Shown: positions 5,721-24,240 of the stretch, one piece after another
How positions within the stretch are numbered: position 1 is the first letter of the stretch
How the letters are laid out: each line of letters begins with the position of its first letter
From: Fibrobacter succinogenes
GTDB taxonomy: Bacteria; Fibrobacterota; Fibrobacteria; Fibrobacterales; Fibrobacteraceae
Reading direction: 5' to 3'
Assembly (NCBI GenBank): GCA_902762305.1
Contig: CACWNW010000022.1
Coordinates: 1-34,987 of the forward strand
DNA: 34,987 nt
Made by a program: the position numbers and the translations under genes
Notes under the pieces: model-generated
Databases searched by the model: none
The model's input: only the letters and a program-made list of their open reading frames with translations
What the model was told of the DNA's origin: nothing

Positions 5721-6093
5721 GAACGGATTCACATTGATAGAACTGGTCGTGACCATGGCCGTATCCGGGATTTTCTTCACGCTGGCCATGAACATGTACT
5801 GCAATGCGAACGGGGCCTTCGTCAACTACAAGAAATCCCACGAAGCCTATTTCGACTACAATGTCAAAAAAGCAACGGCAAACCGCATGCTAAAAGACAA
5901 TCCCGGGAAATGCGGTGACGACGGCACCTTCCATTTTTTGGGCGACACCGCGGATTCCCTGGACAAGGCATTTCCTTTCCCGGCCCCCAAATGCAAAGCA
6001 CTGGACAGGAAGCGAGCTCTTGTCTACTTTTTGGGTATTCCCGATTCCGCATCAAGAGAGCTCCTGGGATACAGCGAAATCTACCAGGAATAA
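5710..6093 (+). CDS. Type IV pilin-like protein (GspH/PilE-like)
   Basis: A 127-aa protein with the prepilin motif NGFTLIELVVTMAVSGIFF: Gly|Phe cleavage site, Glu at +5 and a long hydrophobic helix. The ATG at 5710 is chosen because it places the motif at residues 5-10; the longer open frame back to 5620 lies inside the preceding pilin gene. Cys at about 36, 61 and 94 could form disulfides. It is the last gene of the cluster, and a terminator-like hairpin follows at 6127. With the two preceding proteins it would form the minor subunits of a pseudopilus or pilus. Confidence 0.75.
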   Translation: MRNKNGFTLIELVVTMAVSGIFFTLAMNMYCNANGAFVNYKKSHEAYFDYNVKKATANRMLKDNPGKCGDDGTFHFLGDTADSLDKAFPFPAPKCKALDRKRALVYFLGIPDSASRELLGYSEIYQE

Positions 6094-6120: not shown

Positions 6121-6154
6121 CAAAAAAGCCTCTTCCGGTTTTCCGGAAGAAGCT
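6121..6154 (-). terminator. Rho-independent terminator, mainly for the minus-strand gene
   Basis: A 12-bp hairpin with one mismatch and a TTTT loop (6127-6138 with 6143-6154). Read on the minus strand it is followed by six T. It ends the carbohydrate-binding lipoprotein gene and could also stop the converging pilin cluster. Confidence 0.75.
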
Positions 6155-6180: not shown

Positions 6181-8051
6181 TTACTTGTACATGTAGCTCA
6201 CGCCGTTGGGGAACTTGACTTCGGTCATGCCATTTGTCTGCACCTGGGCTACCGATGTCACGGAACCGCCGTAGATAATCGCGTTGCCCTTGTATGTCGG
6301 CTTGAAGGCCGCATTGCTTGAGCCATAGTAGCTGTTGTTGTCGTAGGTGACGGTCGCGCACTTGGGGAGGTCCGTGGAGTAGTTGCCGAACGCGAGGAGG
6401 ACACCGCCGGTAATCACGAAGCCGGCATCCGTATCGATAAGGCCACCAGCCATGTTGGAGGAGCATCCGCCGCTACCGCCGCCCATGCCACCGCCGCCCC
6501 AGCCGCCAAAGCTGAAACCGCCCTGGTTTTCGTAGCTTTCGCCGGTAATCTCGAGAATCAGCACGCCACCTGTCATCTTTCCGGAGCCGTTCGCGTCGAA
6601 CACGTCAACCATGTTGCCCTTCGCGCTAATATAGTGGTAGCCGCCGCTCACAACGATATGGCCACCGCTCTCGCTGAACGCGGCATACTGGCCGGAATTT
6701 TCCTTCGGGCCGCCGGCACCGTTCCAGCCGTCGTTTGTCGCGAAGGTAGAAGTGATGCCACCCTCGGCGAAAATCCTGTAGGCTTCGATGCCCTCGGAAG
6801 CAGTCACCACGTTAATCGTGGAGCCCTTCAGGTACATCGCGGAGTCCGCATGGAGACCATCGTCCTTTGCATTGACCGTTACCTCGCCGCCATTCATGTG
6901 AATCTGCCAGTGGGTGTGCAGGGCATCATCGCCAGTGGACTTGACGTCAATTTTACCGCCGTCCACGTAGATGTACTTTTCGGCGACAAGGCCCTTGCCC
7001 GTTGCTGTAACCTTGACCGTAGCGGCTTCGGTGGAATCGCTGATGCGGATGTAGTTCGCCGCGTCGATACCGTCGTCCTTTGCGTTGATAGTCACGCTGC
7101 CGCCCCTGATATCGATAATGCCCTTGCCCTCGACGATGTTCTTGCATTCGCCGTTGACTTCTTCGCATTCGTCGCTCTCAAGGCCGTCGCCATTCTTGGC
7201 CGTAAGGTTCAGCGTGCCGCCCGAAATCTGGAGGCTACCCTTGCCCTTGATGGCGTTCTCTTCGGCTTCGACGGTGATGACGCCGTTCTTAATCTTGAGG
7301 TCGTTGCTGCACTGGATGCCGTTCCTGAACTTGCCCTTGACGGTCAGCGTACCCGCACCCTTGATGTTCAGGTCGTCCCTAGAATAAATTGCGGCCTTAG
7401 CGGTATCCTGCGTACCATTAATCTTGGTGAACAGGTGATTGCCGTTACCGTCTTCCACAACGTTCGTGGTGCCCTTCACCAGATGGAGGACGGCCTTGTC
7501 GGCATTCTTCACGAGGATAGGGGAATTGGAACTCTTGATGGTCGCATTGTGCAGGTAGATGCCGGTGTTGCCTTCGTTCTCGACAGCCGGAGTATTCACC
7601 ACAATCTGGAAATCAGACGATTCACCGGTGATATAGTAGGCATCCGGACAGGTCTCTTGTCTGCGATTTCGACACAGCCGTTATTGTTCTCGACGGTCGC
7701 CGTTGTGCCAGCAAGTTTCAAGAGGATCTGGGTTCCGTTCAAGGTCCTCGCGTCTTCCAGGTCGTTTTCGTCGTCGCTGGAAGAACTCACCACAGGCCCA
7801 GCAATGGAGCTGCTGGAAGTTACAGGAAACACGAGAGAACTGCTGGACTCCACGGGAACCATGGCCGAACTGCTGAGATCAACGGGATTCCAGACTGCGC
7901 TGCTCGATTCAACGGGAAATACGACTGCGCTGCTGGATTCCACAGGGGGGTAAGCTTCGCCACCAGGTTCAGCAACAGGATTATCTCCAGAACAAGCTAT
8001 CAAGCTCAGTGCTGCAGATACAGAAATTACAGATAACTTAGTTGTCTTCAT
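6181..8051 (-). pseudogene. Cthe_2159-like carbohydrate-binding lipoprotein, frameshifted
   Basis: Two adjacent frames together make one lipoprotein of about 620 aa. The first frame (8051-7596) holds a lipoprotein signal (SLIACSG lipobox) and a Ser-rich linker with repeats of PVESSS, then runs into NNGCVEIADK. The second frame, in register from about 7660 to 6181, continues as TCPDAYYITGESSDFQIVVN and carries the right-handed beta-helix repeats typical of the Cthe_2159 carbohydrate-binding family: recurring GGTLNLTAKNGDGLESD, GGSVTINAKDDGIDAA and GGEVTVNAKDDGLHAD. A Gly-rich loop follows near the C-terminus. Restoring one A in the AAG at about 7660 joins the frames as DKETCPD. Cthe_2159 itself binds cellulose and pectin-like polymers. 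The break could be a real mutation, programmed, or a sequence error. The start has a GGAG upstream. Confidence 0.85.
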
Positions 8052-8071
8052 AAATCACACTCCATTTTGGA

Positions 8072-8079
8072 CTAATATA
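8072..8079 (-). promoter_or_regulatory. -7 box of the carbohydrate-binding lipoprotein gene
   Basis: TATATTAG on the minus strand, about 20 bases before the ATG and followed by a GGAG Shine-Dalgarno. It is one mismatch from TAnnTTTG. Confidence 0.5.
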
Positions 8080-8303
8080 CACTATAATTAGGAGAATCAG
8101 GCCCAATTTCAGCAAATTCCGTTGAACGAGAAAGCAACAACTCCCGAAAAAGCGGGAACTTTCGTTCCTTCCGTCACGCAACGTTCCAAAACTTCTTGTC
8201 CGGGGTCGTTTCTGTAAACTTTTACTTGCTTCCGATGCCCACAACAGCATATCAAAACGGGGGTCAGCACGGCTCAAAATGGGGCCGCAAGCGGCTCGGT
8301 CAT

Positions 8304-8328
8304 GCCAATTGGCACTTGTGCCATTGGC
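8304..8328 (+). promoter_or_regulatory. Inverted repeat overlapping the cysS -33 region
   Basis: GCCAATTGGCAC, loop TT, then GTGCCATTGGC: a near-perfect hairpin with one bulged base. Its right arm covers the TTG that is well placed as the -33 element of the cysS promoter. It could be an operator or the 3' end of an upstream transcript. Confidence 0.4.
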
Positions 8329-8354
8329 GCAGCATTCGGGTTTTTCTATATTTG
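8324..8354 (+). promoter_or_regulatory. cysS promoter
   Basis: TTG (8324-8326), a 20-base spacer, then TATATTTG (8347-8354). This is a full match to the Bacteroidetes-type promoter pattern and the best one in the window. It leaves a leader of about 40 bases with GGAGG before the cysS ATG. Confidence 0.7.
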
Positions 8355-8398
8355 GGCGCGACTTGTGCAGGTTGCACAAGCATTTAACGGAGGCTAAA

Positions 8399-9853
8399 AT
8401 GGCTCTACAGTTCTACAACACCGCATCGCGCAAGAAAGAAGTATTCACACTCCCCGAAGGCGTCCCCGCCGTGCGCATGTACTGTTGTGGCCCGACGGTG
8501 TACCATTTCGCCCACATCGGCAACCTTCGCACCTACATTTTCGAAGACTTCCTGGTCCGTACGCTCAAGTACTACGGCTACAAGGTGAACCACATCGTGA
8601 ACATCACCGACGTGGGCCACCTCACCAGCGATGCAGACTCCGGCGACGACAAGATGGAAAAGGGCGCCGCCCGCGAAGGCAAGTCCGTTTGGGACATCGC
8701 GAAGTTCTACACCGACGCGTTCATGGCCGACTGGCACCGTTTGAACATCCAGGAACCGACCCGCTGGACGCCTGCCACGCAGCACATCCAGGAACAGATT
8801 GAACTGGTGAAGACCCTCGAAGAAAAGGGTTACACCTACCGCACGAGCGACGGCATCTACTTCGACAGCCTCAAGTTCCCGCGCTATGCCGACTTCGCGC
8901 GCCTCGACGTGGAAAACCTGCGCAAGGGCAGCCGAATCGACATGGGCGAAAAGAAGAACGCCACCGACTTCGCTCTGTGGAAGTTCAGCCCGAAGGACAA
9001 GAAGCGCGCCATGGAATGGGATAGCCCGTGGGGCGTCGGTTTCCCCGGCTGGCATATCGAATGTTCCGCCATGGCCATGAAGTACAACGGCCCGACGCTC
9101 GACATCCACTGCGGCGGTACGGACCACATCCGCGTGCACCACACAAACGAAATCGCCCAGAGCGAATGCGCCAACGGCGTCCCGTTCGCACGCTTCTGGA
9201 TGCACGGCGAATTCCTGCGCACCGCTAGCGAAGAAAAGCTCGAGGACGGCACCACCGAACAGAAGTTCGGCAAGATGAGCAAGTCCAGCGGCGAATTCCT
9301 GACGGTTTCGCTCCTGATGGACCGCGGCTTCAACCCGCTCGACTACCGCTTCTTCGCGATCGGCAGCCACTACCGCAACTACCTGAACTTCACTTGGGAA
9401 GCCTTGGAAGGCGCCAAGGAAGGCCTGAAGAGCTTGCACAAGAAGACGGACCCGCTGATTGGCAAGGCTACCGCAATTACGAGCGAAGCAGCCAAGGCAT
9501 TCCAGAACGAGTTCAAGGACGCCATCGGCGACGACTTGAACATGCCGCGTGCACTCGGCATCATGAACACGATGCTCAAGAGCGATATCGATGACGGCGA
9601 GAAGGCTGCACTCGTGGCCGACTTCGACCAGATTTTCGGCCTGAAGCTCGACGAGCCCCGCGAAGAATATGCCAAGAAGGGCGCGAACGACGGCGTGGAT
9701 GTCGCAAAGATCGAAGCACTGATTGCCGCCCGCAAGGAAGCCCGTGCCAACAAGAACTGGGCCGAAAGTGACCGCATCCGCGACGAACTCGCCGCGATGA
9801 ACGTGGTCATCAAGGACTCCAAGGAAGGCACAACCTGGGAATTCAAGGGTTAG
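8399..9853 (+). CDS. cysS: Cysteinyl-tRNA synthetase
   Basis: A 484-aa class I aminoacyl-tRNA synthetase that charges tRNA-Cys in the cytoplasm. The HIGH signature appears as HIGN at residues 39-42 and KMSKS at 292-296. Cys30 just before GPTVY, and the Cys in GWHIECSAM, are the expected zinc ligands that select cysteine. The HCGGTDHIRVHHTNEIAQSE block is typical. The ATG at 8399 is preceded by GGAGG at ideal spacing; the in-frame extension upstream to 8279 has no coding character and crosses the promoter. The length is normal for the family. It is followed by a terminator at 9889, so it is probably a single-gene transcript. Confidence 0.97.
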   Translation: MALQFYNTASRKKEVFTLPEGVPAVRMYCCGPTVYHFAHIGNLRTYIFEDFLVRTLKYYGYKVNHIVNITDVGHLTSDADSGDDKMEKGAAREGKSVWDIAKFYTDAFMADWHRLNIQEPTRWTPATQHIQEQIELVKTLEEKGYTYRTSDGIYFDSLKFPRYADFARLDVENLRKGSRIDMGEKKNATDFALWKFSPKDKKRAMEWDSPWGVGFPGWHIECSAMAMKYNGPTLDIHCGGTDHIRVHHTNEIAQSECANGVPFARFWMHGEFLRTASEEKLEDGTTEQKFGKMSKSSGEFLTVSLLMDRGFNPLDYRFFAIGSHYRNYLNFTWEALEGAKEGLKSLHKKTDPLIGKATAITSEAAKAFQNEFKDAIGDDLNMPRALGIMNTMLKSDIDDGEKAALVADFDQIFGLKLDEPREEYAKKGANDGVDVAKIEALIAARKEARANKNWAESDRIRDELAAMNVVIKDSKEGTTWEFKG

Positions 9854-21399: not shown

Positions 21400-24192
21400 T
21401 TACTTGTCCACACGGCGGTAACCGCGCGTTGTCGTGAAGGACGAACGCTGGTACGGAGCGTCGATGTACTGGAAGCCACCACCGCCCATGTAGGCACAGT
21501 AGACGTAGTGTTCCTTAATAATGGACACCTGATAGATGTACGGACCAGTTCCAATCTTGCGACCCTGCTGGGAGACCGGGTAGACCTTGACAGTCACCAT
21601 CATTTCGCCGACACCCGTCACCGGAGCGAAATTCGTACCATCGGTACAGGTATTGGAAGTGGCATTGGGCACAGGCTGCTTTTTCATCAATTCCTTAAAC
21701 AGAGCCGTATCCGTCACGCTTTCCGTGTACTGGCTGATGAAATGGCCGAGATTGTCGAACACACGGACGTTCACCATGAACGGCTGAGACGTACGGAACG
21801 AAACACTGGCGCAGCTCTCGATACCGTTCGCATCGGCATAGCAGCGGGCGACAGCCGAGGTACCAGCATTCTTGTCGCTAACCATGGCACCCGGGAAGAG
21901 CCTATCCTGGACGGTTCCTCCAGCTACACCATCAGCACCAGGAGCGGCGGCAGTAACATCGTTCCAATGTTCGTCGAGCCACTTGCTCTGGTCACCGCCA
22001 TCGATAAATGAAGGCGGAAGCGGGGTAAGCAGGAGCTCTGCAGTAGAATTGGCAGGAAGTTCACCGCCATTTGCCTTGTCGGTAAGTTCCTGGTTATTGA
22101 AGATCGGACGCACAATAGACGTATCCTTCATCTCGATAACCGTCGTCGGGTTCACGAGCAGCGAAGCAACAGCCCATTCCGGCGGATACGATTCCACAGT
22201 CTTGCCCGCCTTGGACGAAATGAACTTCGGCATTCCGTATACGACAGAAGTTCCCACAGCCATCTGTTCAGTCCACATGTTGTGGCCTTCGCTCAACTGG
22301 TCTACGTTCGGGTAGTTAAAGGCAATCTGGTCACCAGCCTGGATTGTCGATTCCTTGCCGTTCTTATCCAACAAGACGCCCTGGATATCGTACACAATAC
22401 CGTCCGCACCCTTGTCGATGACAAACTGGATGTCCTTCACATACAATCCCAAAGTATCGTATTCAACACAAGACTGTGCGGCAATATTGTAGTTGGTGCA
22501 ATGGGTCACCACAAGAGCCGGGAACGGACTTGTCGTGCTCTGGCCACCGATTTTCATCATCTCCAAGGTTTCTTCAGAAAGCTCGGTATTCAAGATAAGG
22601 CTCGTCGTCGCAACACCGTCGGTCATGGTCACTTCGGCACCGGTAACCTGCGGCTGACCATACTTGGTCGGTGCGATTTCGGCAAGGGAAGTACGGATGT
22701 ACATGTTCGAACCATCGGACTGACGGTCAGCATAGAAGAAATGCAGGTGGTGCCAGGTGTTGTCGTTCCAGGAACCGTCAGCCTTCAAATCACAGTTCTG
22801 GCCCTTTGCCGTCTGCAGTGCAAGCGGAGGAGCACCATAACCCACAGCGGCAAGCGACGGGTCGGTAACACAACCGTGACCATTCTTGGCAAGCACAGAA
22901 ATATCAACGCGGCCGGGGGTTGCAAGGTGGGTACCGCCAAGGTCCACAACGAGCACACCGTCCACAAAGATCCACATGTCGTCGTCACCAGCGAATTCAA
23001 AGACTTCGGGGTCAGGCTGGCCGGCAGAATTCACCTGGTTCTTGGAATGGTACTTGAACTTGGCATAGCCCATCATGGTAAAGCCATAATTGCGCAGGTG
23101 ACGGGGGCCAAGAACCGGATCCAAAAGCGAGGCATTATAAGCTGCATCCGGAGAACGCGGGCCACCATTTAAAAGCCAAGCCGTGCAAAGATTGGCCGTG
23201 GTATCGTTCATCATGTCCTTCTGCGTAGAGGCGTATTCGTACTCATACGGAGGGCAGAAGATGGAAAGCGTCTGCGGGCCCCACTGGTCGCACTGCTCCG
23301 TCGAGCATCCACCATTCGCGCTCGTCGCTGCATCAAGACGTATCTGCGAAATAGTATCGACGATATCGAGCGGGAAGTAGCCACCGTTACTGTAGTTATA
23401 GTCAATAGAATAGATATTCTTCGAAGAACCTGCCGTAACAACGGGCGGAAGAGAAAGGATCGTGTTACTACGCTTGGCATAGGCGTTGTCATCGGAGTAC
23501 CACTGGTCAAAATAGGTGTTGTCACACAATTCCTGAGCCTTCAAGATACGCACGCCATTGAGCATATCGATTTCGCCCGCAGCATTCGGCACGAATTGGA
23601 GATAGGATTGCACCATGCCAGGCGTGTAATACACAGGGTTCGACCAATTGACGCCATTAGTGCTGCACTTCACGCCACTGACCAGGCCGTTCTGATAAGC
23701 CTTATAACCACGCTGAGTACGCCCATTCACCCCATCCTTGCACTCACCATACTGTAGGGTATCGGCCGAAGTAACAGACTGCAAGTATGAAGGCAAGAAG
23801 TAGTTTATAGCACTGGGTTTACCATCCTGGCCAATCCATGCGCCTTGCTTAGAACGCTTGTTACCACACGTATTATGCAGGGCAATCTGGCTCCACCAAT
23901 TCACGTCATAGCCAGGAATATTCATTTTATACATGGATTCGCCACAGAGACCGGTCTCGGTAGCCCGCTGTGCGGCACTAACACCTTGACGGCACCATTG
24001 CCCTCCATTCTGGTCACCCGTACTAGCATATTCTTCGGAGAAGTTTTCAAAGTCAGGATGGTTCACGGGGAAGTCGCGAACAACAACGTCGAGGTTAGCC
24101 GCTCCAGCCACATCGGCGTGTGCCGGTGCGAAACAGACCAAACCAAAGGATACTGCCGTAAGAGCTAATCCAACTGCGATATTTTTTTTCAT
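21400..24192 (-). CDS. Fibro-slime domain secreted protein
   Basis: A 930-aa exported protein. The ATG at 24192 was chosen because it gives MKKN plus a hydrophobic signal peptide ending in AHA; an in-frame ATG 45 bases upstream would add a poor leader. GGAG lies about 12 bases before. The mature N-terminus (AANLDVVVRDFPVNHPDFEN) opens the fibro-slime module, which continues to the PA14-like core near residues 375-430 with FEFAGDDDMWIFVDGVLVVD, then LGGTH. That core is a calcium-dependent carbohydrate-binding-type fold. The C-terminal half is beta-rich with TxxS repeats and paired Cys. Fibro-slime proteins are characteristic of Fibrobacter and have been linked to adhesion to cellulose. Location is probably the outer membrane or cell surface. 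It is monocistronic, with its own promoter and terminator. Confidence 0.92.
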   Translation of the reverse strand: MKKNIAVGLALTAVSFGLVCFAPAHADVAGAANLDVVVRDFPVNHPDFENFSEEYASTGDQNGGQWCRQGVSAAQRATETGLCGESMYKMNIPGYDVNWWSQIALHNTCGNKRSKQGAWIGQDGKPSAINYFLPSYLQSVTSADTLQYGECKDGVNGRTQRGYKAYQNGLVSGVKCSTNGVNWSNPVYYTPGMVQSYLQFVPNAAGEIDMLNGVRILKAQELCDNTYFDQWYSDDNAYAKRSNTILSLPPVVTAGSSKNIYSIDYNYSNGGYFPLDIVDTISQIRLDAATSANGGCSTEQCDQWGPQTLSIFCPPYEYEYASTQKDMMNDTTANLCTAWLLNGGPRSPDAAYNASLLDPVLGPRHLRNYGFTMMGYAKFKYHSKNQVNSAGQPDPEVFEFAGDDDMWIFVDGVLVVDLGGTHLATPGRVDISVLAKNGHGCVTDPSLAAVGYGAPPLALQTAKGQNCDLKADGSWNDNTWHHLHFFYADRQSDGSNMYIRTSLAEIAPTKYGQPQVTGAEVTMTDGVATTSLILNTELSEETLEMMKIGGQSTTSPFPALVVTHCTNYNIAAQSCVEYDTLGLYVKDIQFVIDKGADGIVYDIQGVLLDKNGKESTIQAGDQIAFNYPNVDQLSEGHNMWTEQMAVGTSVVYGMPKFISSKAGKTVESYPPEWAVASLLVNPTTVIEMKDTSIVRPIFNNQELTDKANGGELPANSTAELLLTPLPPSFIDGGDQSKWLDEHWNDVTAAAPGADGVAGGTVQDRLFPGAMVSDKNAGTSAVARCYADANGIESCASVSFRTSQPFMVNVRVFDNLGHFISQYTESVTDTALFKELMKKQPVPNATSNTCTDGTNFAPVTGVGEMMVTVKVYPVSQQGRKIGTGPYIYQVSIIKEHYVYCAYMGGGGFQYIDAPYQRSSFTTTRGYRRVDK

Positions 24193-24240
24193 AAGATCCA
24201 ATCTCCACCTACTCGAAAATAGGTCTACAATATTCACCCC

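What the first reader, a model, noticed from the sequence alone, without database searches (positions are those of the whole stretch)
6181..8051. Single-base frameshift splits a Cthe_2159-like carbohydrate-binding lipoprotein
Both frames encode convincing parts of one protein, and adding one A near 7660 joins them as DKETCPD. The reading frame is otherwise open and the promoter and terminator are intact, so the event is recent, programmed, phase-variable or a base-calling error.
Basis: seen in the sequence. Interest (0 to 1): 0.5.

Follow-up and report, generated by a model that had tools for sequence, protein, structure and literature searches.

The report
Surface carbohydrate-binding gene broken by deletion
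In this gut Fibrobacter, a gene for a surface protein expected to grip plant polysaccharides has lost a few bases, so its secretion part and its binding part no longer make one protein; this looks like an ordinary, recent gene breakage, not a new mechanism.

Summary
The split is real, but it is not a single missing base. Of 61 relatives' or paralogous loci compared, 57 (40 distinct sequences) align across the junction, and all 57 have a net 10 bp more than the window at 7653/7654, minus strand. A 10-bp loss also shifts the frame by one. The motif around it has one length, 22 residues, in the 53 of 59 loci that show it. The loss falls in codons for invariant residues at the start of the PF14262 (Cthe_2159) domain. 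A one-base join would give a protein three residues shorter than the relatives', not the orthologous protein.

The deletion form is in 1 of 80 genus genomes, this one. The part after the lesion shows no relaxed selection and no stop in 490 codons, so the event is recent or, less likely, an assembly artefact. I found no slippery heptamer, RNA structure or repeat tract, so programmed frameshifting and phase variation are not supported.

Predicted outcome: a 151-aa lipoprotein stub, and a binding domain without export signal. Probably a recent pseudogene in one Fibrobacter draft assembly. Interest is low.

The parts
6181..8051 (-). Disrupted gene: secreted Cthe_2159-family (PF14262) lipoprotein, Fibrobacter orthologue group
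7596..8051 (-). 5' frame: lipoprotein signal with lipobox LIAC, Ser-rich linker and N-terminal extension; 132 in-frame codons, then 19 out-of-frame residues and TGA
   Evidence: lipobox by inspection (motif recalled)
7653..7654 (-). Lesion: net loss of 10 bp relative to orthologues, between these two bases
6184..7653 (-). 3' frame: Cthe_2159 domain and C-terminal region, 490 codons without a stop
7596..7602 (-). Two adjacent GTG codons of the 3' frame, the second overlapping the TGA of the 5' frame; no Shine-Dalgarno sequence upstream
7809..7946 (-). Ser-rich linker coded by degenerate repeats with a 30-bp spacing (four copies)
6127..6154 (-). Terminator-like hairpin with T-run downstream of the gene

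Best explanation
A recent out-of-frame deletion of 10 bp (or a 6-bp in-frame loss plus a 4-bp loss) has inactivated a Fibrobacter gene for a surface lipoprotein with a Cthe_2159 (PF14262) polysaccharide-binding beta-helix. Shown: the split, its net size and place, and its absence in the relatives examined. Inferred: translation from 8051 gives a 151-aa lipoprotein stub that stops at the entry of the binding domain. The domain itself has no signal peptide and no evident ribosome-binding site, so it would be made poorly if at all and would stay in the cytoplasm. The organism would thus lack this binding protein; one other PF14262 locus is open in the genome.
For: Net 10-bp gap in 57 of 57 relatives' loci that cover the junction, 40 distinct sequences. 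The junction motif has one length, 22 residues, in 53 of 59 loci; the other 6 are a contig edge (L088) and matches at 44-53% identity that I read as paralogues (L097, L102, L104-L106). ATITCP is kept in 53 of 53. The deletion form occurs in 1 of 80 genomes with up to 3 mismatches; the backwards control pattern also hits 1 of 80, G036. The loss takes the codons of residues 178-180 and part of 177 (L033 numbering); 178-180 are invariant in 23 aligned orthologues, lie in strand 177-180 of the modelled orthologue and at the start of the PF14262 match. No relaxed selection after the lesion: omega 0.062 against the sister in the tree, L004; three-point terminal-branch omega 0.180 for the window and 0.180 for L004, other tips 0.063-0.295. 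No stop in 490 codons; 6.5-9.6 would be expected over the 476 aligned ones had the whole branch been neutral, which puts the lesion in about the last 31-46% of that branch at most. No RNA structure, no SD before the first internal GTGs. The second PF14262 locus is an open 598-aa frame.
Against: No reads and no second strain of this species were available, so the deletion rests on one draft assembly (57 contigs, 95.16% complete, 3.83% contamination). Absence of relaxed selection fits an artefact equally well. The dS values are high (0.63 and more against any relative), so the selection estimates are rough. Loss of function is not tested.
Confidence: 0.84

Rival explanations
1. Assembly or consensus artefact: the gene is intact in the cell and 10 bp were dropped in the draft.
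For: Single draft genome with 57 contigs; purifying selection unchanged after the lesion; no other strain seen; deletion form unique among 80 genomes.
Against: A 10-bp loss outside a repeat is not a usual base-calling error (established knowledge). Of 17 other window proteins scanned, 13 match a curated family or domain model in one frame over nearly the whole length of the model; 2 match only part of the best model and 2 have none.
Confidence: 0.12
2. Two-protein state by termination-reinitiation at the overlapping GTG/TGA, so that a cytoplasmic beta-helix fragment is still made.
For: The stop at 7598-7596 overlaps a GTG of the downstream frame, with another GTG just before it.
Against: No SD; the overlap is created by the shift, since the relatives checked read through in one frame (29 of 29). 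The product would lack its export signal.
Confidence: 0.03
3. Programmed ribosomal frameshift or phase variation.
For: Only that the two frames overlap and both are otherwise open.
Against: No slippery heptamer or repeat tract at 7640-7670 (inspection); RNA fold no better than shuffles, z +0.72; intact motif in 53 of 59 loci; the loss removes invariant residues.
Confidence: 0.01

Closest known systems
PF14262 Cthe_2159 carbohydrate-binding beta-helix proteins (PDB 4peu/4phb)
   Same: Sequence match E 1.4e-27, 1.4e-37 with the orthologue profile; the AlphaFold model of an orthologue is mostly a long run of beta-strands. PMC6712302 (passages read) says these are beta-helix proteins that bind celluloses and polygalacturonic acid.
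   Different: Here the coding sequence is broken at the entry of the domain; the Fibrobacter members are lipoproteins with a long, variable Ser- or Pro-rich linker.
Ordinary indel pseudogenes / singleton frame transitions (Antonov et al. 2013, PMC3711429; abstract and two sections read)
   Same: A frame transition not shared by relatives and without recoding signal, which that paper's figure legend calls likely indel mutation or sequencing error.
   Different: Nothing beyond the gene concerned.

Membership tests
PF14262 Cthe_2159 | Match above the curated cut-off | tested here: met
   260.2 bits against 25.8 for the 3' frame
PF14262 Cthe_2159 | Whole domain encoded in one frame | tested here: not met
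   In six frames the match starts at profile position 12 (29, where the query began at 7602); the intact orthologue L004 starts at 2
PF14262 Cthe_2159 | Binding to cellulose or polygalacturonic acid | not testable with these tools
   Needs purified protein
Bacterial lipoprotein | Signal peptide with lipobox Cys | tested here: met
   MKTTKLSVISVSAALSLIAC by inspection (motif recalled); A18 and C19 are invariant in 23 aligned orthologues
Programmed -1 frameshift gene | Slippery site, stimulator and conservation of the split | tested here: not met
   No heptamer by inspection; z +0.72; split not found in relatives
Phase-variable gene | Simple repeat tract at the frame change | tested here: not met
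   None at 7640-7670 by inspection; one search lists no short tandem array there
Recent pseudogene | Frame-disrupting lesion, intact relatives, and the same lesion in reads or sister strains | tested here: inconclusive
   First two met; reads and sister strains were not available

The most novel reading that the evidence does not exclude
The deletion is a standing polymorphism: rumen or gut Fibrobacter populations keep strains with and without this surface polysaccharide-binding lipoprotein, trading adhesion for something else, with the second PF14262 gene as backup.
Probability: 0.07. Interest if true: 0.35.

Novelty: new member of a known kind. Interest (0 to 1): 0.12.

Why it matters
Mainly a correction: the lesion is a net 10-bp loss inside invariant domain residues, so reading it as a one-base slip would give a wrong protein. 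If real in the strain, one of two PF14262 loci found in the genome of a presumed plant-fibre specialist is lost, while the gene is common in the genus and under purifying selection.

Tried and rejected
Single-base error at a run of A: rejected by the alignment. Programmed frameshift: no slippery heptamer (inspection), no RNA structure. Phase variation: one search finds the linker repeats, three two-copy families of 11-14 nt (one, 7576-7589 and 7686-7699, straddles the lesion at 110-bp spacing; the other two, at 191 and 287 bp spacing, straddle it too) and two inverted pairs over 270 bp apart; none gives a 10-bp change. Deletion shared with a relative: 1 of 80 genomes, own only. Deletion form in viral contigs: no match. 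Old decaying pseudogene: omega and stop counts argue against it. One change beside the lesion, G to D, is at a position invariant in 39 of 39 other orthologues (a further locus, L092, has A there), but the other tips carry 0-4 such changes each, so one is not unusual. Microhomology at the breakpoints: none seen by inspection; a two-step 6 + 4 loss is not excluded. Literature: 7 papers hold Cthe_2159 (passages of three read); 0 papers hold Fibrobacter succinogenes plus carbohydrate-binding domain-containing plus lipoprotein; 11 hold Fibrobacter, pseudogene and frameshift, 10 listed, of which only PMC3711429 was opened.

Weak points: the indel survey with relatives' proteins covered little of the window, because the neighbourhood is mostly not syntenic. 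One structure model, mean pLDDT 65.7, residues 1-143 below 50. No fold search was run.

Full report
The window is contig C22 of a 3.6-Mb draft genome in 57 contigs. Of 30 related loci with record titles, all are metagenome-assembled genomes; 29 are labelled Fibrobacter and one Fibrobacterales. The gene lies alone on the minus strand, with a plus-strand ORF ending at 6093 downstream and cysS on the plus strand upstream. A terminator-like hairpin follows it at 6154-6127. The scan found no minus-strand sigma-70-like promoter; it does not cover other promoter types.

The split is real. Frame A starts at the ATG at 8051, preceded by GGAG at 8 nt, encodes a lipoprotein signal and a Ser-rich linker, and stops at 7598-7596 after 151 aa. 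Frame B is open from 7680 and ends at 6183-6181. Frame B holds the PF14262 Cthe_2159 domain, 260 bits against a cut-off of 25.8, and matches PDB 4peu/4phb. Of 80 genomes of the genus (the own included), 74 have a match; no listed match has an internal stop, but the list was cut. In the 30 best rows the window's frame is 499 aa and the other 29 are 653-745 aa. All 29 of those loci have signal, linker and domain in one frame.

In a BLASTN comparison with 62 loci, 58 cover the junction: the window's own and 57 relatives (40 distinct sequences, as 17 came in twice). All 57 have a net 10 bp more than the window between the bases now at 7654 and 7653. The aligner draws this as one 10-bp gap (43), as 4+6 (7), as 11 with 1 back (5), as 6+4 (1) or, in the divergent L021, as 6+3+1 (1). 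L002, L003, L054 and L058 gave no alignment there. A motif count gave one length, 22 residues from NNNGC to the residues after TCPG, in 53 of 59 loci from 58 genomes (L028 and L077 are one genome, so 52 genomes). The six without it are a contig edge (L088) and matches at 44-53% identity that I read as paralogues (L097, L102, L104-L106). One loss of 10 bp is the simplest event; an in-frame 6-bp loss followed by a 4-bp loss is not excluded. The deletion form is found in 1 of 80 genomes, the own one, with up to 3 mismatches allowed; the backwards control hit 1 of 80, G036.

The place matters. The loss takes the codons of residues 178-180 and part of that of 177 (numbering of L033). A178, T179, I180, T181, C182 and P183 are invariant in 23 aligned orthologues, and ATITCP is kept in 53 of 53 loci with the motif; neighbours such as K176 and G184 vary in a few wider loci (L021, L092). 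In the AlphaFold model of that orthologue (mean pLDDT 65.7, about 81 in this block) residues 177-180 are a strand, one of the first of the ordered part. The profile alignment with 4peu runs through the same segment and keeps an IT-PG-Y pattern. In L004 the PF14262 match starts six residues before TCPG (position counted). The lesion thus hits the entry of the domain, in a segment without length variation among these relatives.

How recent is it? Over 476 codons after the lesion, pairwise omega of the window with its sister in the tree, L004, is 0.062. With the 12 closest sequences by dS the median is 0.131 (0.061-0.229), and 0.138 (0.039-0.254) among those 12 themselves. Three-point terminal-branch estimates are dN 0.041, dS 0.226, omega 0.180 for the window and dN 0.042, dS 0.234, omega 0.180 for L004; the other 11 tips lie at 0.063-0.295. 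These are rough, as dS against any relative is at least 0.63. Had the whole branch been neutral, 6.5-9.6 stops would be expected and none is seen, so the lesion falls in at most about the last 31-46% of the branch, or is an artefact. One change at a position invariant in the 39 other orthologues lies next to the lesion; other tips have 0-4 such changes.

Alternatives were tested. The RNA downstream of the lesion folds no better than shuffles (z +0.72), and there is no slippery heptamer (inspection). The main repeats of the 5' part are degenerate 30-bp units of the linker, 7809-7946, over 150 bp from the lesion; three short two-copy families (spacing 110-287 bp) and two inverted pairs were also listed, none at the lesion itself. 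The stop of frame A overlaps a GTG of frame B, but without a Shine-Dalgarno sequence, and a protein started there would lack the export signal.

Is the draft full of indels? Of ten window proteins scanned against NCBIfam, seven match a model over nearly its whole length (cysS, guanylate kinase, S16, RimM, TrmD, L19, deformylase), two match only part of the best model and one has no family. Of seven window proteins scanned against Pfam, six match domain models over nearly their whole length and one has none. A domain match does not test the rest of a protein. This speaks against a generally indel-rich contig but cannot exclude one local error.

Conclusion: most likely a recent, ordinary inactivating deletion in a known family, seen in one draft assembly. 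The genome's other PF14262 locus (C1, open frame 598 aa) has no internal stop; it was not examined further. PMC6712302 (passages) reports that Cthe_2159 proteins bind celluloses and polygalacturonic acid; that the Fibrobacter protein does so is inference from family membership. PMC3711429 (abstract and two sections read) treats singleton frame transitions as likely indel mutations or sequencing errors.

Noticed in passing
window 7809-7946: Linker of degenerate repeats with 30-bp (10-aa) spacing, Ser-rich here; in orthologues the same region varies strongly between SSSS-type and PGxEIPG-type repeats.
   Followed up: partly
window 6634-7953 (+): A 439-aa antisense ORF covers the gene, and long antisense frames over orthologues match the same frame at about 56-61% identity; probably a codon-usage effect.
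   Followed up: no
L028/L077 (G022:C21): A second, shorter match in a 285-aa frame at contig positions 877-1533 lies about 37 kb before the full copy in G022.
   Followed up: no
window 21400-24237 (-): 945-aa protein with no Pfam match at E 0.001; looks like a fibro-slime-type secreted protein (name recalled, not tested).
   Followed up: no
window 6181-9853: Neighbourhood is poorly conserved: of six relatives sampled (24-40 kb each), only G070 showed cysS beside this gene at 50% identity or more.
   Followed up: partly
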